Shown here piece after piece: positions 15,218-62,950 of a DNA stretch of 64,000 nucleotides. Where the stretch lies: the IMG/VR virus record IMGVR_UViG_3300044845_000594, positions 56,303 through 120,302 of that record, one strand, 5' to 3'. Numbering within the stretch: position 1 is the stretch's first letter; each line of letters starts with the position of its first letter. The position numbers and the translations under genes were made by a program. The notes beneath the pieces are model-generated. The model saw only the letters and a list, made by a program, of their open reading frames with translations. It made no database searches and was not told the DNA's origin. Source of the stretch: a virus.

Positions 15218-16057
15218 ATGAAAAGAATAGTAAGACTAACGGAATCAGATTTAACAAGACTTGTTAGAAGAATTGTTAATGAAAATACAAATATGCAAGC
15301 TGAAGTTGCTATAGAAAATTGTGACGAAAACGATGATATGGCAATGGAAAGATGTGTAGATAATTTATTTGCAGATATGACAGAAGAAGATGCTGAAAAC
15401 TACATTATAGAATTATCAAAAAGAAAACCAAAATGGTTAAAAAAATTAGCTCAATGGTTTAGAAGAACAGGAAGAAAAATTAAAAGAGAAGTTAGAAGTA
15501 TTAAAAGGGATTTTAAAAGAAAGGAACCGAAAGAAAAAATCTTTAATGTAGGTGCGTCTCTTACTTTCGCAACATTAGCCACATTGTTTATGAAACATGT
15601 GTGGTTACCAATGGTTGGTGGAGATAATTCAAGAATGAATGAATCACATATTAGACGTAGATTTATTAATGAGCAAGGTCAAGGTCCAATTGGTGGGTTT
15701 GGAGGTCCGTTGACAGGAACATTGGTTGCGAGAAATCCAGATGCTGAAGTTAGATTTGGACAAGATATTGAATTTACATTTAGAGGTATTAAAAATTCTG
15801 GAAGTGCACCAATTACTATAAAAAGGATTCTTCCTATGAATAGCGGTATGAGAATTGATAAACAAGTTCCTTTTACCGTAAACCCTGGTGAAACTTTTGT
15901 GCTTAGAGCAAAACAAAAATTAGTAAGGGGCGGTACTTCATTAGAAAAAGTGAACGAAGAAGGTTTAGTCGAATTTGAAGGGATAATTAGGGTAGAGACT
16001 GACGGAAAAAAACAAAACTACCAATTATATTGTCGTCAAAATTTGTCTTTTAGATAA
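15218..16057 (+). CDS. Leader-bearing (putative capsid-targeted) protein with membrane segment and Ig-like domain
   Basis: 279 residues. The N-terminal 22 residues form the basic leader shared across the window (RIVRLTESDLTRLVRR, then IVNE). A Lys/Arg-rich region (residues 65-105), one hydrophobic segment (~108-130) and a second leader-like phrase (HIRRRFINEQ, ~143-152) follow. The C-terminal ~110 residues look like an Ig-like beta domain of DUF1573 type (FRGIKNSGSAPITIKRILP, then PFTVNPGETF). A TATTTAT motif lies 26 nt upstream. The repeated (I/V)NE sites would fit cleavage by a T4 gp21-like prohead protease. Role inferred, not shown. Confidence 0.65.
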   Translation: MKRIVRLTESDLTRLVRRIVNENTNMQAEVAIENCDENDDMAMERCVDNLFADMTEEDAENYIIELSKRKPKWLKKLAQWFRRTGRKIKREVRSIKRDFKRKEPKEKIFNVGASLTFATLATLFMKHVWLPMVGGDNSRMNESHIRRRFINEQGQGPIGGFGGPLTGTLVARNPDAEVRFGQDIEFTFRGIKNSGSAPITIKRILPMNSGMRIDKQVPFTVNPGETFVLRAKQKLVRGGTSLEKVNEEGLVEFEGIIRVETDGKKQNYQLYCRQNLSFR

Positions 16058-45609: not shown

Positions 45610-45781
45610 TAAAAGATTTCTTAACAAAGAACAAATTTTAAAAAATCAACATCATATAATTGAGTATCTTCAAGCAGATGCACTTTTTATAACGGATAAG
45701 TTTTCTGAAGAAGTTTACAGATTATTCAAGGATGGGGCAAATGAAAAAACAATAATTGAATATATAAATAAAAATAAATGA
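45599..45781 (+). CDS. Small helical protein (60 aa)
   Basis: GFNKRFLNKEQILKNQHHII then a helical C-terminus. It overlaps the glutamine synthetase start by ATGA, so it is translationally coupled. Function unknown. Confidence 0.5.
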   Translation: MGFNKRFLNKEQILKNQHHIIEYLQADALFITDKFSEEVYRLFKDGANEKTIIEYINKNK

Positions 45782-46896
45782 AAGTAACCTTAGAATATGT
45801 ATGGTTAGATGGATATACTCCAGAACCAAACCTTAGAAGTAAAGTAAAAGTTGAAGAAATTAATACAAATGTGAATGAGTTCAAATTTCCAGAATGGAGT
45901 TTCGATGGGTCATCAACAAATCAAGCAAACACAGAAAATTCAGATAAAATATTAAAACCTATAAGATATTATACTCAAAAATCTTTTCCTTTAGAAAATA
46001 GCAGGGTATATGTTTTATGTGAAGTATTAAATTCAGACGGCACACCCGACGAATCAAACATTAGGTCAAAAGTTGAAAACCAAGAAGATTTGTGGTTTGG
46101 TTTTGAACAAGAATATTTTATTAAAAATTCAAAAACAAATAATATCTTAGGCCACGAAACCCCACATTTAGAACCCCAAGGAAAATATTATTGTGGAGTT
46201 GGACATAATGTTGTTGGAAGGGGTTTTGCTGAGGAACACATGGCGTTATGTTTAATGTATGGTATGGAAATAACAGGTATTAATGCTGAAGTCGCATTAG
46301 GACAATGGGAATACCAAGTTTTTTCTAAAGGAAGTTTGAAGGCTGCCGATGATTTATGGATGACAAGATATTTTTTACATAGACTTTCAGAAAAGTACAA
46401 CTATGAAATAATTTTACACCCAAAACCAATTAAAGGTGATTGGAATGGTTCAGGGATGCATACCAATTTTTCAAATGAAAGAATGAGAACACTTGGTGGT
46501 TATGAATATTTTCAAGCAATTTTCAATACATTTGGTTCAAGACATCATGACCATATTAAAAATTACGGTTCCGAAAATAATTTGAGACTTACAGGAAAAC
46601 ACGAAACACAATCAATTGAAAAATATAGTTATGGTATTGGTGATAGAGGGGCATCAATTAGAATCCCAAAATCAACCGCCGAAAATTGGAAAGGGTATAT
46701 TGAAGATAGAAGACCGGCATCTAACGCTGATTCATATAAAGTTGTTTTAGAAATTATAAAATCACTTAAAAGTACAGAAACATTAATGGAGATTACCATG
46801 AAAATGAATACCAAAATAAACGTAGATGAACTGAGCGGTAAATACGGAACAGTTACAAATGAAGAGTTGTTAAAAGAATACAGAGAAGAGGAATAA
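45778..46896 (+). CDS. glnA: Glutamine synthetase, type II
   Basis: 372 residues, the usual length of GSII rather than the ~470 of bacterial GSI. Motifs: FPEWSFDGSSTNQA (latch/N-domain, ~37), FGFEQEYF (metal-binding Glu, ~104), INAEVALGQWEYQV (~168), KGDWNGSGMHTNFS (ammonium/Glu pocket, ~222), YGIGDRGASIRIPKST (ATP/phosphate, ~283) and EDRRPASNADSYKV (~305). All key residues look intact, so it should make glutamine from glutamate, ammonia and ATP. It is coupled to small neighbours. A GS gene in a phage is unusual; it may boost nucleotide and amino-acid supply during infection. Confidence 0.93.
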   Translation: MKVTLEYVWLDGYTPEPNLRSKVKVEEINTNVNEFKFPEWSFDGSSTNQANTENSDKILKPIRYYTQKSFPLENSRVYVLCEVLNSDGTPDESNIRSKVENQEDLWFGFEQEYFIKNSKTNNILGHETPHLEPQGKYYCGVGHNVVGRGFAEEHMALCLMYGMEITGINAEVALGQWEYQVFSKGSLKAADDLWMTRYFLHRLSEKYNYEIILHPKPIKGDWNGSGMHTNFSNERMRTLGGYEYFQAIFNTFGSRHHDHIKNYGSENNLRLTGKHETQSIEKYSYGIGDRGASIRIPKSTAENWKGYIEDRRPASNADSYKVVLEIIKSLKSTETLMEITMKMNTKINVDELSGKYGTVTNEELLKEYREEE

Positions 46897-56056: not shown

Positions 56057-56126
56057 AGTCGTATAGCTCAGTTGGTAGAGCAATCCATTTATGGACGTGT
56101 CACAGGTTTGAATCCCGTTGCGACTT
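56057..56126 (+). tRNA. tRNA-like gene with shortened anticodon arm
   Basis: 70 nt. Acceptor AGTCGTA/TGCGACT, normal D arm (GCTC/GAGC) and T arm (ACAGG, TTTGAAT, CCCGT). Between D arm and variable loop only 14 nt remain instead of 17: TCCA/TGGA with a 4-nt TTTA loop. No anticodon can be read. Closest to elongator tRNA-Met in its D/T arms. Either a pseudo-tRNA or a tRNA-like RNA with another use. Confidence 0.6.
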
Positions 56127-56135
56127 ATCAAAATT

Positions 56136-56166
56136 AAAAAAGGTGTTGGAAACAACACCTTTTTTG
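56136..56166 (+). terminator. Rho-independent terminator
   Basis: AAAAAGGTGTTG and CAACACCTTTTT with a GAAA loop: a perfect stem with T run, ending the tRNA-like transcript. Confidence 0.9.
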
Positions 56167-56200: not shown

Positions 56201-56881
56201 ATGAATAGAAGTTATAGTAAAATTAGACACATGCAACAATCAAACTTGATGTTGGAAAATAGAATAATGGAAGAAAAATCAAGACAATTTTTGATGGAAA
56301 TCACCGATGACAATGGTCTACTTACCGCTTATCCTGATTTAAAAACAGTATTGGAACCAAAACTTAAAGCTGCCGATAAAACAGGAGAAACAAGTGTTGG
56401 TGTGTATGGTTCAAAGGCATATTTTAGAGCGGCAAAAGGTCAGACTAATTGGACTATATATGTCTATACTTTTGGACCAAGAACATATGGTAGACCCAAA
56501 TATGCTAATCCGGCAACGGTTCTAACTTTAGATTTTCCTGATACTACAATGAATGAAGTTCCGTATTTCTTTTATGGTAGTCCTGACACAGGTAGCGGCT
56601 CAGCAGCCCAAAAATTTTATTTGTCGGGAAGTTTTGGTGACATAATAGCCAATAATGGTTCATTGAAATTATCTACTAAACTCGAAGTAAAAACTGACGA
56701 CGAAGTTGCTGCCGATATATCCAAACATTTTCCTGGTTTTGACGCCGCAAAGTTAGTTACAATTGCAAACAATTTAAAATTAGGTTCCTACGCAAAAAAT
56801 CTATCTAAAGAAACTAGAGCTAAATTAACAGGAGTCGCTAAAACGGTTTATGATACAATTGCAGGACCGGCTCAAAAATAA
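56201..56881 (+). CDS. Cassette-array protein 1 (226 aa)
   Basis: ATG at 56201; TATTTAT lies 17 nt upstream. The leader is a variant: NRSYSKIRHMQQSNLMLEN then SRQFLMEITDD, keeping an L-M-E site in the same place as other members. The core is a beta-rich domain (SVGVYGSKAYFRAAKGQTNW, FFYGSPDTGSGS). The tail ends GPAQK, close to the PTQK tail of the next genes. First gene of the array. Confidence 0.65.
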   Translation: MNRSYSKIRHMQQSNLMLENRIMEEKSRQFLMEITDDNGLLTAYPDLKTVLEPKLKAADKTGETSVGVYGSKAYFRAAKGQTNWTIYVYTFGPRTYGRPKYANPATVLTLDFPDTTMNEVPYFFYGSPDTGSGSAAQKFYLSGSFGDIIANNGSLKLSTKLEVKTDDEVAADISKHFPGFDAAKLVTIANNLKLGSYAKNLSKETRAKLTGVAKTVYDTIAGPAQK

Positions 56882-56985
56882 AATAAAATAATTATGAAAC
56901 AATTTATTATATCAGAACAAGAAAAACAAAGAATTTTGGAAATGCACCAAAATGCCACGTCAAAACAATATTTAAACGAAGACCT
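56867..56985 (+). repeat. Array junction repeat, copy 1
   Basis: Spans the end of gene 1, the A-rich spacer and the first ~30 codons of gene 2. Near-identical to 57323-57436 and 58267-58381. Confidence 0.75.
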
Positions 56986-57337
56986 TTCTCAGGTTATTTT
57001 ATTGTCTTTAACTTTACAATATAATTTAGCACCGGGAAATATTAAAAAATATTCCCCAACTGTTTTTTTTAGTGCTGATATTTCAACTCACAATATAAAA
57101 ACAATTAGACAAATTTCTTTATTTAATCAGATTGAAGTGGGACCAAGTTATCAATCTTTAAAAGGTAATATTATTAATGGTCAATTTTCCCTTACTCCCG
57201 AACAAATCAATATATTAAAACCAAAGATAAATAAAGGACCACAAGTTTTAGAAGGGAATATGGTTATCGCCGAACAAGGCACTCAATTTGGGGTCAAACC
57301 TACAATTATTGAAAAACAAATGCCAACTCAAAAATAA
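56894..57337 (+). CDS. Cassette-array protein 2 (147 aa)
   Basis: Leader KQFIISEQEKQRILEMHQNA then SKQYLNE (sites I-S-E, L-N-E). The core (~30-140) is an unassigned beta-type domain (VILLSLTLQYNLAPGNIKKY). The tail ends MPTQK. Thirteen nt after gene 1. The leader is near-identical in DNA to the leaders at 57350 and 58294 while the core is unrelated. Confidence 0.65.
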   Translation: MKQFIISEQEKQRILEMHQNATSKQYLNEDLSQVILLSLTLQYNLAPGNIKKYSPTVFFSADISTHNIKTIRQISLFNQIEVGPSYQSLKGNIINGQFSLTPEQINILKPKINKGPQVLEGNMVIAEQGTQFGVKPTIIEKQMPTQK

Positions 57338-57436
57338 AATAAAATAATTATGAAACAATTTATTATATCAGAACAAGAAAAAAATAGAATTTTGGAAATG
57401 CACCAAAGTTCAACTTCAAGACAATATTTAATGGAA
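57323..57436 (+). repeat. Array junction repeat, copy 2
   Basis: Junction between array proteins 2 and 3, carrying the PTQK-coding end, spacer and leader-coding start. Confidence 0.8.
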
Positions 57437-57889
57437 CAATATGTAGCAACAAGTAAAAACAATTCAGTGATTATTACTTTACCTTACAAAAAAATTAAAG
57501 ACCAAAAAGGTAATATTGTAGAGGTTCCTGCTAAAGAAGCGTTTTTCAAGCCGGAATACGTCCCAACTTTTTTAGCTTTGGATGGTGACCCAGATTTAGC
57601 AAAAGAATTAAGTAAAAACCCAAATATGAAAACCTACACTCTAAATAGTATAGACCTTGGAGGTGGTGCTGGTGAAGGTACTATAACAACTTTTGGTCCT
57701 CAAAAATTTGTAAAAGGTGGTGATGGATATATTTACCTGTCCGGGAAAGCTTCAATGGGGGGTGTAACTAAAATAAACTTTGGAATCTTTCCATCTGGAA
57801 ATGTAACTAAATTTTCAGATACAAATACCCCAAAAACGGGTGGAGTTACAATAAAAAAAGGAAAAGAATACATCCCAACTCAAAAATAA
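57350..57889 (+). CDS. Cassette-array protein 3 (179 aa)
   Basis: Leader KQFIISEQEKNRILEMHQSS then SRQYLMEQ (I-S-E, L-M-E). The core includes VIITLPYKKIKDQKGNIVEV and a Gly-rich part (DLGGGAGEGTITTFG). The tail ends YIPTQK. No known fold. Same flanks as genes 2 and 5. Confidence 0.65.
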   Translation: MKQFIISEQEKNRILEMHQSSTSRQYLMEQYVATSKNNSVIITLPYKKIKDQKGNIVEVPAKEAFFKPEYVPTFLALDGDPDLAKELSKNPNMKTYTLNSIDLGGGAGEGTITTFGPQKFVKGGDGYIYLSGKASMGGVTKINFGIFPSGNVTKFSDTNTPKTGGVTIKKGKEYIPTQK

Positions 57890-57912
57890 TAAAATAAATA
57901 AAAAACAAAAAA

Positions 57913-58281
57913 ATGAAAAGAATTGTAAGATTAACTGAGTCAGATTTAGCTCGAATTGTAAGAAGGGTTATTAATGAACAAGCACCAACATTACCAAAAG
58001 TTCCTAATTTAGAATTTCCGAATTATACATTTATATTTAGTTATGACGCCAGTGATGACAGTATTATTTGCCGAGGATATATAAAAAACCCACAAAGAGC
58101 ATTGAAACAACTAGACAGTCCGGTTAATATGGGTAGTGATTATATTATGAAAAGTACTTTACGAGGTTGGGGAATGCAATCACAATTTGATGGAACAATT
58201 GGTCGTAAAATTAAAGAAACCTTGGACAATTTATTAATGCAAATTGTAGAGTACAAAAAAAAGAAACCCACTCAAAAATAA
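57913..58281 (+). CDS. Cassette-array protein 4 (122 aa)
   Basis: Leader of the other type: KRIVRLTESDLARIVRR then VINEQ (L-T-E, I-N-E), as at 15218. Core: YTFIFSYDASDDSIICRGYI and a basic C-half. The tail ends KKKKPTQK, so the tail type is shared across both leader types. Confidence 0.65.
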   Translation: MKRIVRLTESDLARIVRRVINEQAPTLPKVPNLEFPNYTFIFSYDASDDSIICRGYIKNPQRALKQLDSPVNMGSDYIMKSTLRGWGMQSQFDGTIGRKIKETLDNLLMQIVEYKKKKPTQK

Positions 58282-58381
58282 AATAAAATAATTATGAAAC
58301 AATTTATAATCTCAGAACAAGAAAAAAGTAGAATTTTGGAAATGCATCAAAGTGCAACTTCAAGACAATATTTAATGGAAG
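58267..58381 (+). repeat. Array junction repeat, copy 3
   Basis: Junction between array proteins 4 and 5 with the same PTQK-spacer-leader order as the other copies. Confidence 0.8.
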
Positions 58382-58785
58382 CGGTTCAATCTGTAGTTTT
58401 AAGTTTAAATATTCCAACAATCAATGGTCAAATAGATAGAAATAAAAACATATCTTTTTCTATAGGTCCGCTTGGTAAAAACGCCGCAAATGAATATACA
58501 GGAATATTAAATAGTATGATTATCAATGGTGGATTTGCAAATAAATTAACAAATCAAAAATTAAATGGTGAGTATGTAAATGGAGAAATCATGTTAGGAA
58601 ACGATGCCGATTTACTTATAAGTGCGATTAATAATGTGAAAAGTGATGATTTAATTGATACATCTATGTTTAATAGAAACTCCGCAAGTTTTGTAAGAAA
58701 AAAAGACCCGAACAATCCATCATCTGGGCCACAAACGGTTTTTATACAAAAAATTATTAAAAAATCGACACCAACACAAAAATAA
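58294..58785 (+). CDS. Cassette-array protein 5 (163 aa)
   Basis: Leader KQFIISEQEKSRILEMHQSA then SRQYLMEAV. The core starts SVVLSLNIPTINGQIDRNKN and resembles protein 2 slightly in order (a beta domain followed by a Gly/Asn-rich loop). The tail ends STPTQK. Function unknown. Confidence 0.65.
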   Translation: MKQFIISEQEKSRILEMHQSATSRQYLMEAVQSVVLSLNIPTINGQIDRNKNISFSIGPLGKNAANEYTGILNSMIINGGFANKLTNQKLNGEYVNGEIMLGNDADLLISAINNVKSDDLIDTSMFNRNSASFVRKKDPNNPSSGPQTVFIQKIIKKSTPTQK

Positions 58786-58801
58786 TAAAAATAAAATAAC
58801 T

Positions 58802-59284
58802 ATGAAAAAAATTATAAGACTAACCGAAAGAGACCTAACTCGTATTGTTAAAAGAGTTATCAATGAAAGACAATATTTGATGGAAGAAGAAGTTGCAACA
58901 AACTATTTCAACACTATGAAAACTAAGTTTGATGGTCAAATGACAGCATATAAATTACCGACCATTACATTACAACTAAATAACAATGGAACTATTTCGA
59001 TTGTTAAAGATGGAAAAGCGGTATATACGTCAACAGTTTCACCAGATGTCCCAACTTTATTACAGGCCATATCATATAATGAAACTGTAAAAGGGACCGA
59101 TATCCCAACGGTAAAATTAAGTTCTTTATTATTACCAAATTTAGTAAATGGATATACCAACTATGTTAAATCAACACCCGACGCTAAGTTAACACTAGGT
59201 CCGGTTACTGGAGCTTTACGAAGTGCTGTAACGGAAGTTGTTAACACATATTTTAAAAATAAACAACCAGCACAACCTAAATAA
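58802..59284 (+). CDS. Cassette-array protein 6 (160 aa)
   Basis: Combined leader: KKIIRLTERDLTRIVKR, VINERQYLMEEE, holding both the RIVKRVINE and QYLME types in one protein. Core with KLPTITLQLNNNGTISIVKD. The tail ends QPAQPK, a variant of the array tail. A terminator follows at once. Confidence 0.65.
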   Translation: MKKIIRLTERDLTRIVKRVINERQYLMEEEVATNYFNTMKTKFDGQMTAYKLPTITLQLNNNGTISIVKDGKAVYTSTVSPDVPTLLQAISYNETVKGTDIPTVKLSSLLLPNLVNGYTNYVKSTPDAKLTLGPVTGALRSAVTEVVNTYFKNKQPAQPK

Positions 59285-59290
59285 AAAATT

Positions 59291-59322
59291 AAAAACCCCA
59301 CCTGAAAAGATGGGGTTTTTTA
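59291..59322 (+). terminator. Terminator at end of array
   Basis: AAAACCCCA and TGGGGTTTTT stem; can also serve the converging minus-strand gene. Confidence 0.85.
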
Positions 59323-59739
59323 TTAAGAGGCTTTTTCAAAACGACACTTTGAAATTTTCTTTACGGTTGTCATGTAATCGGTAAACCAATACCACATCAC
59401 AGATTCATCTTTTGTGTTCACCAACAAACCATAATCAAAACCATCTTCAAGAATACTAACTTTTAAAACATCATCACCAAAATCTTCGTATTCAATTGGA
59501 AGAACACTTTTTTCTACATCATTAACAAAATATGTAGAAGTTTTTTCATCCAAATCTAACACGTAACGTGTATATGTGGAATCAACGTCATAACTATAAT
59601 CAGGACTTGAATAAACAGAATCCAAAGTTGTTTTTCTTTCGCAAACCATTTCTTGTCTTTCAAAAACATGAATTATAATTTTTTGAGAAAAACTCAAAGT
59701 GGACAATAAAAGACCGAATGTTAAAAATAGTGTTTTCAT
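59323..59739 (-). CDS. Secreted protein (138 aa), minus strand
   Basis: Sec signal peptide (KTLFLTFGLLLSTLSFSQ, ending in Ser-Gln as in Bacteroidota exports). The mature part is acidic and Tyr-rich (SVYSSPDYSYDVDSTYTRY) with no lipobox and no known domain. Its promoter lies in a 40-bp repeat shared with the CAP-domain gene. Likely acts in the periplasm or outside the cell; function unknown. Confidence 0.65.
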   Translation of the reverse strand: MKTLFLTFGLLLSTLSFSQKIIIHVFERQEMVCERKTTLDSVYSSPDYSYDVDSTYTRYVLDLDEKTSTYFVNDVEKSVLPIEYEDFGDDVLKVSILEDGFDYGLLVNTKDESVMWYWFTDYMTTVKKISKCRFEKAS

Positions 59740-60731: not shown

Positions 60732-60762
60732 AAAAAACCCACCCCATAAAGGTGGGTTTTTT
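60732..60762. terminator. Probable bidirectional terminator
   Basis: AAAAACCCACC and GGTGGGTTTTTT stem with runs on both sides; sits between converging genes. Confidence 0.85.
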
Positions 60763-61273
60763 ATTTATATACCGTTAAAACACAATAAAAAATCTGACCA
60801 TTATCATAAGTAACCCCATCTATAATAATCTTATCTGAAGTTTTACTACCAACACAAAATCCGTTGTATTTTGGGTTTAACATCAACGCATTATGTTTAG
60901 GAGAATTTTTCCATAACTCTAACACTTCATTCGCTCTTTCTTCATCCGTCTTCAAATCTCTAAAACTACAAAGGTTTTCCCCAATATATGTGTAGTTGTA
61001 CCCATACAAATATGTTATTCTATCTATGAATGTTTCAAATGTTGTTGGAAAAGAAGATACAATTCTTTGAGAATGGTCCATAGGTAATGTAGATGTCTCA
61101 ATCATATAGTTTAACATTTGGTCGTTGGCCAATTTGGCTTTAGATTCATATACTAATTCAGGAATACCATTTTGTTTTCGATATAAATTAATTTTTTTAA
61201 TAATAAGTTCATTTACCTTTTGACCAAAAGAAAACGAGAATATAAATAAGAATGTTATTAAAAGTATCTTCAT
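60761..61273 (-). CDS. Secreted CAP-domain protein
   Basis: 170 residues from the ATG at 61273, which places the signal peptide (KILLITFLFIFSFSFGQ) at the start; the open frame extends 10 codons further. CAP/SCP motifs: KKINLYRKQNGIPELVYE, IGENLCSF (~108), LWKNSPKHNALMLNP (His, ~132) and QIFYCVLTVYK. CAP proteins are usually secreted and bind lipids or have peptidase-like activity. A secreted CAP protein in a phage is unusual. Uses the same 40-bp promoter repeat as the gene at 59739. Confidence 0.8.
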   Translation of the reverse strand: MKILLITFLFIFSFSFGQKVNELIIKKINLYRKQNGIPELVYESKAKLANDQMLNYMIETSTLPMDHSQRIVSSFPTTFETFIDRITYLYGYNYTYIGENLCSFRDLKTDEERANEVLELWKNSPKHNALMLNPKYNGFCVGSKTSDKIIIDGVTYDNGQIFYCVLTVYK

Positions 61274-61907: not shown

Positions 61908-62225
61908 ATGAGAAATAGATTAACTGAAAGAGATTTATCACGTATTGTTAGACGTGTAATCAAAGAAGACAAAAACGATAGAAGAGAAATCAATAGCATT
62001 CTTGATGATATATTCGCAACTTTTGAATTTTCTGAAAAAGGAAATGACGAAATGATTACATTAGCTAAGTTTATTGTTGAAAAACCAAATGAAGTTGCAA
62101 GTTCAATTATGGCAAGACTTAAAAAAGGTTATGGTGCACACGATGAAGATGACACTTTTGGAACTTATACATCAAAAAGAGATGAATTAAGAGACTTAGA
62201 AAGTAGATTAGGTTCAAGAATGTAA
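61908..62225 (+). CDS. Leader-bearing small protein (105 aa)
   Basis: Leader RNRLTERDLSRIVRR then VIKED (L-T-E, I-K-E). The body is helical and charged, with LAKFIVEKPNEVASSIMARL. TATTTAT lies 15 nt upstream. Last leader gene in the window, followed by a terminator and the tRNA operon. Confidence 0.65.
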   Translation: MRNRLTERDLSRIVRRVIKEDKNDRREINSILDDIFATFEFSEKGNDEMITLAKFIVEKPNEVASSIMARLKKGYGAHDEDDTFGTYTSKRDELRDLESRLGSRM

Positions 62226-62514: not shown

Positions 62515-62589
62515 GGTGTGGTAGCTCAGTAGGTAGAGCAAAGAGCCCGAAAACTCTTGTGCCGATGGTTCGATTCCATTCCCATACCA
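62515..62589 (+). tRNA. tRNA, probably Phe(GAA), with 8-nt anticodon loop
   Basis: 75 nt. Acceptor GGTGTGG/CCATACC, D arm GCTC/GAGC, anticodon stem AAGAG/CTCTT enclosing an 8-nt CCCGAAAA loop, T arm GATGG-TTCGATT-CCATT. The variable and T arms resemble bacterial tRNA-Phe. The usual U33 is C and the loop has one extra base. Anticodon could be read as GAA or CGA, so identity is uncertain. Confidence 0.65.
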
Positions 62590-62633
62590 CAAAAGAATTT
62601 ACAACGGACAAGGCTTAGGCAAGTGAGTTGAAA

Positions 62634-62883: not shown

Positions 62884-62950
62884 AGTCAGGTGGCGTTATT
62901 GGAGTACGCATCGTAAATGAAGATTGCAGGTTCGAATCCTGTCCTGACTA
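62884..62950 (+). tRNA. Degenerate tRNA-like element (67 nt)
   Basis: Perfect acceptor AGTCAGG/CCTGACT, D arm GCG/CGC and T arm GCAGG-TTCGAAT-CCTGT. Only 16 nt lie between D and T arms (about 23 expected), with at most a 3-bp ATC/GAT stem, so no proper anticodon arm forms. Its acceptor and T arm match the 119-nt element at 63146, suggesting that they share an origin. Confidence 0.55.

What the first reader, a model, noticed from the sequence alone, without database searches (positions are those of the whole stretch)
56201..59284. Tandem cassette array: conserved leader and PTQK tail around variable cores
Seen: six consecutive genes with near-identical leaders; four end in PTQK and two in close variants (GPAQK, PAQPK). 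Three junction regions (56867-56985, 57323-57436, 58267-58381) are nearly identical in DNA, while the cores differ. Inference: matching flanks let homologous recombination insert, delete or swap cores, like a hypervariable internal-protein locus. The shared C-terminal tail is not a T4 feature and could be a second sorting or processing tag.
Basis: partly seen in the sequence, partly recalled or inferred. Interest (0 to 1): 0.88.

Follow-up and report, generated by a model that had tools for sequence, protein, structure and literature searches.

The report
Swappable capsid-cargo gene cassettes in phage
A large virus of freshwater bacteria carries a row of small genes that share interchangeable start sequences, probably address labels for packing proteins inside the virus head, and a shared end tag, while related viruses shuffle the middle parts, probably to change which proteins they inject into the host.

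Summary
The array is real, with one correction. Six genes (56201-59284) lie between two terminators and all end in PTQK or a near variant. Their leaders are not near-identical but fall into three unrelated classes: A (g2, g3, g5), B (g4, g6) and C (g1). Relatives show cassette turnover. A phage with 97-99% identical flanks keeps only g2 and g4, in swapped order. Identity breaks at the end of the first leader (56294-56299) and resumes at the last tail (59279). The g5 core is 95% identical in DNA to a core with an unrelated leader in another phage whose flank is only 73% identical. Five of eight core groups occur with at least two unrelated leaders. Leaders end in [I/L]-x-E, the T4 gp21-type cleavage motif. 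Relatives encode a gp21-type protease and a capsid propeptide ending INE|A. All mature cores are small and basic (pI 8.7-9.6; about 20% of background proteins reach this). Best reading: a T4-style internal-protein (capsid-targeted, injected, probably counter-defence) locus in phages predicted to infect Bacteroidota, with several interchangeable leaders and a clade-specific tail. Encapsidation, cleavage, injection and core function are inferred; the tail's role is unknown. New variant of a known kind.

The parts
56057..56126 (+). tRNA-like gene just upstream of the array (missed by ARAGORN)
   Evidence: Rfam tRNA model, 46.1 bits; ARAGORN none
56135..56166 (+). terminator-like stem-loop before the array
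56201..56881 (+). g1: class C leader (56201-56299), core F1, tail GPAQK
   Evidence: identity with relatives ends at 56294/56299, the leader end
56867..56985 (+). junction repeat 1: tail of g1 + spacer + A leader of g2
56894..57337 (+). g2: class A leader, core F2, tail MPTQK
   Evidence: present at a different array position in L018
57323..57436 (+). junction repeat 2: tail of g2 + spacer + A leader of g3
57350..57889 (+). g3: class A leader, core F3, tail IPTQK
   Evidence: related core with C leader in L025 and B+remnant leader in L229, L029
57913..58281 (+). g4: class B leader, core F4, tail KPTQK
58267..58381 (+). junction repeat 3: tail of g4 + spacer + A leader of g5
58294..58785 (+). 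g5: class A leader, core F5, tail TPTQK
   Evidence: core with C leader in L010-L012 and E leader in L013-L016; AF2 core pLDDT about 90 over residues 31-110
58802..59284 (+). g6: class B leader followed by an A-leader remnant (RQYLME), core F6, tail PAQPK
59291..59320 (.). terminator-like stem-loop after the array (G+C stem, T runs on both sides; called on the - strand by the scan)
   Evidence: shared sequence in L018, L025, L010, L113
59869..60714 (+). separate class A leader gene, no PTQK tail
61908..62225 (+). separate class B leader gene, no PTQK tail
15218..16057 (+). separate class B leader gene elsewhere in the window, no PTQK tail

Best explanation
The array is an internal-protein cassette locus of a large T4-like phage predicted to infect Bacteroidota. 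Each gene is an N-terminal capsid-targeting propeptide (leader), a small basic core and a short tail. The leader would dock the protein on the prohead core; the gp21-type protease would cut after [I/L]-x-E at the leader end, leaving the core inside the head to be injected with the DNA, most likely to counter host defences. The leader, spacer and tail DNA serve as homology arms: recombination at the leader/core edge and across tail-spacer-leader junctions inserts, deletes, reorders and re-leads cores. Shown: three leader classes, cores exchanged between unrelated leaders, turnover between close relatives, breakpoint positions, the motif, protease and capsid propeptide in relatives, and core charge. 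Inferred: encapsidation, cleavage, injection, counter-defence, and homologous recombination as the cause.
For: Close relatives with 96.8-98.8% identical flanks have different cassettes; identity ends at 56294/56299 and resumes at 59279/59280. The g5 core is found with leaders A, C and E, and own vs L010 core DNA is 94.7% identical against 73% for the flank. F3, F3b, F3c and F6 also occur with two or three leader classes; scars RVINE-RQYLME and RVINE-RNLLME. 182 B leaders: I/V/L at P3 in 181, E at P1 in 177, free P2, conservation lost right after. Relatives have PF03420 protease and PF07068 capsid; capsid propeptides end INE|A. Mature cores have pI 8.7-9.6 in 30/30 versus 20% of 1,068 background proteins. 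Model of g5: compact core starts right after the leader. T4 precedent for targeting, cleavage, injection and anti-restriction: PMC9026906, PMC5694885, PMC3012670, PMC12373910.
Against: No virion proteomics, cleavage or packaging data. The own record is a fragment without head genes, so protease and capsid come from relatives. No sequence or fold similarity to T4 internal proteins or any counter-defence protein. Leaders are 22-33 aa, longer than the 10-19 aa of T4 internal proteins. Many other leader proteins in these phages are not basic, so the leader may serve more than one class of cargo.
Confidence: 0.74

Rival explanations
1. The leaders are not cleaved and not capsid-directed. They are N-terminal helices that tether proteins to some other phage structure or host complex, and the array is a cytoplasmic accessory-gene locus.
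For: Leaders also sit on many non-basic proteins scattered over the genomes. No direct packaging data.
Against: Conservation stops exactly after a Glu with [ILV] at P3 and a free P2, a protease-site pattern, shared with the capsid propeptide of relatives. All array cores are basic.
Confidence: 0.14
2. The array arose by tandem duplication followed by divergence, with no exchange of cores between leaders or phages.
For: A-leader genes g2, g3 and g5 share about 110 bp junctions. F3b and F3c cores are distant relatives.
Against: The same core carries unrelated leaders in different phages; near-identical flanks enclose different cores; core DNA 94.7% vs flank 73%. Most core families are unrelated.
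Confidence: 0.02
3. Leader, spacer and tail are conserved mainly as DNA homology and translation-start arms for cassette exchange, with no function in the protein.
For: Junction DNA is 90-93% identical, and breakpoints fall at both edges.
Against: B leaders keep their peptide across diverse phages and gene contexts while synonymous sites change. Array leaders are also used by isolated genes outside arrays. This rival stays open for the PTQK tail alone.
Confidence: 0.05
4. The array products are packaged by the leader but act in the head (DNA condensation, head assembly, like a suggested role of T4 IPIII) rather than as injected counter-defence proteins.
For: All cores are basic and small. A head-assembly effect of T4 IPIII is reported (PMC9026906).
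Against: Rapid turnover of unrelated cores between phages with nearly identical flanks suggests changing targets rather than a fixed assembly role; all three T4 internal proteins inhibit type IV restriction enzymes (PMC12373910).
Confidence: 0.2

Closest known systems
T-even internal protein (ipI/ipII/ipIII) loci of Tequatrovirus
   Same: Shared N-terminal leader ending in [I/L]-x-E before unrelated small basic proteins; poorly conserved, polymorphic sets between related phages; gp21-type protease; near tRNA genes in T4 too. Shuffling by flanking homology was proposed for T-even phages (Repoila et al. 1994, cited as ref. 27 of PMC12373910; content from own knowledge).
   Different: Several unrelated leader classes are interchangeable on one core; leaders are 22-33 aa and often carry a second inner [IL]xE; shared C-terminal PTQK; up to six tandem genes; no sequence or fold similarity to T4 internal proteins; the promoter-bearing flanking repeat recalled for T-even phages is not seen.
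Ejection/head proteins with cleaved propeptides of giant phages (phiKZ, SPN3US)
   Same: Many head proteins with N-terminal propeptides removed after Glu by a prohead protease (PMC5694885).
   Different: Cleavage motif there is A-x-E or S/A/G-x-E; some propeptides are over 100 residues; no cassette array with swapped leaders is described in the passages read.
bS21-encoding freshwater Bacteroidetes phages (PMC9723584)
   Same: The relatives here have the same layout: terminase, portal, bS21 on the reverse strand, protease, capsid.
   Different: The word 'internal' does not occur in that paper's main text. The leader array is not named in the passages read.

Membership tests
T4-type internal proteins (capsid-targeted) | Shared N-terminal leader before otherwise unrelated cores | tested here: met
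T4-type internal proteins (capsid-targeted) | Leader ends in the gp21-type cleavage motif [I/L]-x-E | tested here: met
   T4 leaders read for comparison
T4-type internal proteins (capsid-targeted) | gp21-type prohead protease and gp23-type capsid in the same phage group | tested here: met
   Nine of eleven records, including the near relatives G001 and G007; not in the own fragment
T4-type internal proteins (capsid-targeted) | Small basic mature proteins | tested here: met
   11-21 kDa, pI 8.7-9.6 in 30/30, background 20%
T4-type internal proteins (capsid-targeted) | Number, order and identity of genes vary between close relatives | tested here: met
T4-type internal proteins (capsid-targeted) | Packaged in the head, propeptide cleaved, injected with DNA | not testable with these tools
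   Needs virion proteomics and infection experiments
T4-type internal proteins (capsid-targeted) | Sequence or fold similarity to T4 IPI, IPII or IPIII | tested here: inconclusive
   No PHROG, Pfam or PDB sequence match and no significant fold match for g5. T4 internal proteins themselves are unrelated in their mature parts, so this is not a strong criterion; the other cores were not modelled well
T4-type internal proteins (capsid-targeted) | About 70-bp flanking repeat with an early promoter around each IP gene (recalled from Repoila et al. 1994, not readable here) | tested here: not met
   Spacers are 12-24 nt without a promoter excess in the scan. The repeated flank is instead tail + spacer + leader coding DNA. 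This is a trait of the T-even loci rather than of internal proteins as such

The most novel reading that the evidence does not exclude
A two-ended cargo format: any small basic core placed between one of several unrelated but equivalent capsid-targeting leaders, most with a second inner [IL]xE site, and the PTQK tail is packaged. The tail acts as a second packaging or retention tag, so the phage exchanges injected effectors as plug-in modules.
Probability: 0.2. Interest if true: 0.82.

Novelty: new variant of a known kind. Interest (0 to 1): 0.66.

Why it matters
It extends the T-even idea of exchangeable injected proteins to uncultured large T4-like phages predicted to infect Bacteroidota. 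It also gives a searchable signature (leader up to [I/L]-x-E, basic core, PTQK) for predicted injected, probably counter-defence proteins; the leaders themselves are found in tens of phage contigs. Natural exchange of unrelated leaders on one core is a ready-made experiment on what a capsid-targeting sequence needs.

Tried and rejected
DNA search of 54-62 kb in 50,697 phage records: no match. Protein search of g5 and short leader searches there: nothing credible. PHROG, Pfam and PADLOC scans of cores: only sub-threshold hits, such as DUF7173 on g1 at E 7e-4, below its cutoff. Fold prediction for F3: poor model (pLDDT 42). Fold search for F5: no significant match; PDB sequence search none. 84,980 bacterial and archaeal genomes for the B-leader protein g6: no relative. 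Cultured relative Flavobacterium phage immuto: capsid protein 41% identical and some leader-like N-termini, but no such array seen in the stretch read. The 1994 paper on T-even polymorphism was not held. Exact leader peptides do not occur in the paper library. Considered and rejected: one common leader for all six genes (three classes); simple duplication and divergence.

Full report
WHAT IS THERE. The window is the last 64 kb of a 120,302-bp virus record with T4-like tail and baseplate genes upstream. Six + strand genes run from 56201 to 59284 between terminator-like stems at 56135-56166 and 59291-59320. Spacers are 12-24 nt. Every protein is a leader, a core and a PTQK-type tail. The leaders fall into three classes: A on g2, g3 and g5; B on g4 and g6; C on g1. 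The junction repeats (tail + spacer + next A leader) are 90-93% identical over 105-125 nt, while core DNA is at background.

TAIL. Among 4,079 ORFs of at least 60 aa in the loci held at that point, PTQK-like ends occur on 22 distinct proteins, all with an A, B or C leader. Across 27 curated cassettes the last four residues carry 3.0-3.9 bits each; the ten before carry about 0.8-2.1. Leader-bearing genes outside these cassettes lack the tail, and distant relatives of g5 with a different leader lack it too. The tail therefore belongs to this clade's cassettes, not to leader proteins in general. Its role is open: recombination arm or functional tag.

TURNOVER. Two records (L008, L009) are 100% identical to the window over 10.2 kb and so say nothing about change. 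L018 (contig 3300032304_001781) is 96.8-98.8% identical to the window in its shared flanks up to 56294 and 97.2% again from 59280. Between these points it keeps only g2 (87.9%) and g4 (94.9%), in the opposite order, with four other cassettes. L139 (3300027759_000289) matches to 56299 and from 59279, with two cassettes between. Position 56299 is the last base of the g1 leader, and 59279 is in the last two codons of g6. Other relatives have one or two cassettes at the same site, next to the same signal-peptide gene. Where a C leader is present it is always on the first cassette.

LEADER EXCHANGE. The g5 core occurs with leader A here, C in L010, L011 and L012, and another leader (E) in L013-L016. 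Own and L010 cores are 97% identical in protein and 94.7% in DNA, while the neighbouring gene is 62% in protein and about 73% in DNA. This is recent exchange between different phages. F3, F3b, F3c and F6 also each appear with two or three leader classes. g6, L029 and L229 carry a B leader followed by the stump of another leader (RVINE-RQYLME, RVINE-RNLLME), readable as a scar of leader replacement. Apart from F3b-F3c (and perhaps F2-F3c), core families are not detectably related, so simple duplication and divergence does not explain the array.

WHAT THE LEADER IS. Profile searches find 4-16 B leaders and 1-6 A leaders per phage record. No relative of g6 turns up in 84,980 bacterial and archaeal genomes. 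In 182 distinct B leaders the peptide is conserved up to a Glu (177/182) with I, V or L two residues before it (P3; 181/182) and a free position between them; information falls from 4.1 to 1.3 and then below 0.9 bits right after it. The selection pattern used only the first part of the leader, and the result holds in 155 leaders after leaving out genes that start at the usual locus match position, with synonymous codon change throughout. The A leader shows the same ending and usually an inner [IL]xE as well (41/47 inner and 42/47 outer, against 19% and 32% of other proteins in the same stretches). Relatives encode a T4 gp21-type protease and a gp23-type capsid protein. All ten distinct capsid propeptides of these relatives that were inspected end LINE|A at residue 60. 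Cleavage after Glu by such proteases is documented for T4 and giant phages (PMC5694885). The AF2 model of g5 has a confident beta-rich core starting right after the leader and a low-confidence separate leader helix.

WHAT THE CORES ARE. Mature cores are 11-21 kDa with pI 8.7-9.6 in 30 of 30. Only 20% of 1,068 other proteins of similar size in these loci (30% in the own record) and 35% of other leader proteins reach pI 8.7. Because these families are mostly unrelated, shared basicity points to a shared compartment, most simply the DNA-filled head. T4 internal proteins are small basic proteins with a capsid-targeting leader, poorly conserved between phages, and inhibit type IV restriction enzymes (PMC9026906, PMC3012670, PMC12373910). 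The T4 proteins were read directly for comparison: IPII and IPIII share MKTYQEFIAE|A, and IPI ends its leader STITE|A (cut positions from own knowledge). No core here has a recognisable fold or family, so counter-defence is analogy.

HOST AND CLADE. Relatives show the terminase-portal-bS21-protease-capsid layout of the bS21 freshwater phages predicted to infect Bacteroidetes (PMC9723584). TATNTTTGTA, similar to the Bacteroidota -7 promoter element (own knowledge), occurs 12 times against 3.6 expected.

LIMITS. Encapsidation, cleavage, injection and function are not shown. The own record lacks the head genes because it is a fragment. Homologous recombination as the cause is inferred from breakpoints. 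B-leader counts partly reflect how loci were fetched. The key 1994 T-even paper could only be cited through others and memory.

Noticed in passing
window 59323-59739 (-): Small signal-peptide protein of unknown function (MKTLFLTFG...) that stays next to the cassette locus across diverse relatives, even where the leader class differs (L010-L018, L025, L112, L113, L227-L229; more distant versions in L013-L016 and L035).
   Followed up: partly
window 60761-61273 (-): Phage-encoded secreted CAP-domain protein (PF00188, E 5e-7), with relatives at the same locus in L017 and L138.
   Followed up: partly
window 15218-16057 (+): B-leader protein with a second leader-like stretch in its middle (MNESHIRRRFINEQ), possibly two cleavage sites.
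   Followed up: no
window 62515-62590 and 56057-56126 (+): tRNA genes at the edges of current models: one called with a 4-base anticodon loop (cgaa), one seen by Rfam but not by ARAGORN; another Rfam-only tRNA at 62884-62950.
   Followed up: no
L145 to L223, around the ClpB/ClpA-like AAA gene: In more distant phages other A-leader genes with unrelated cores and no PTQK tail sit near the same AAA gene, so the site looks like a wider hot spot for leader genes.
   Followed up: partly
L034 (1415-7913) and L019 (206-4067): Runs of consecutive leader-bearing genes with unrelated cores in other phages, mixing B leaders with a fourth class (NRFKQLLES.MGNVKPL...) and MKIIITESQ-type starts.
   Followed up: no
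window 45778-46896 (+): Apparent glutamine synthetase gene in the phage (recognised by eye, not searched), a possible auxiliary metabolic gene.
   Followed up: no
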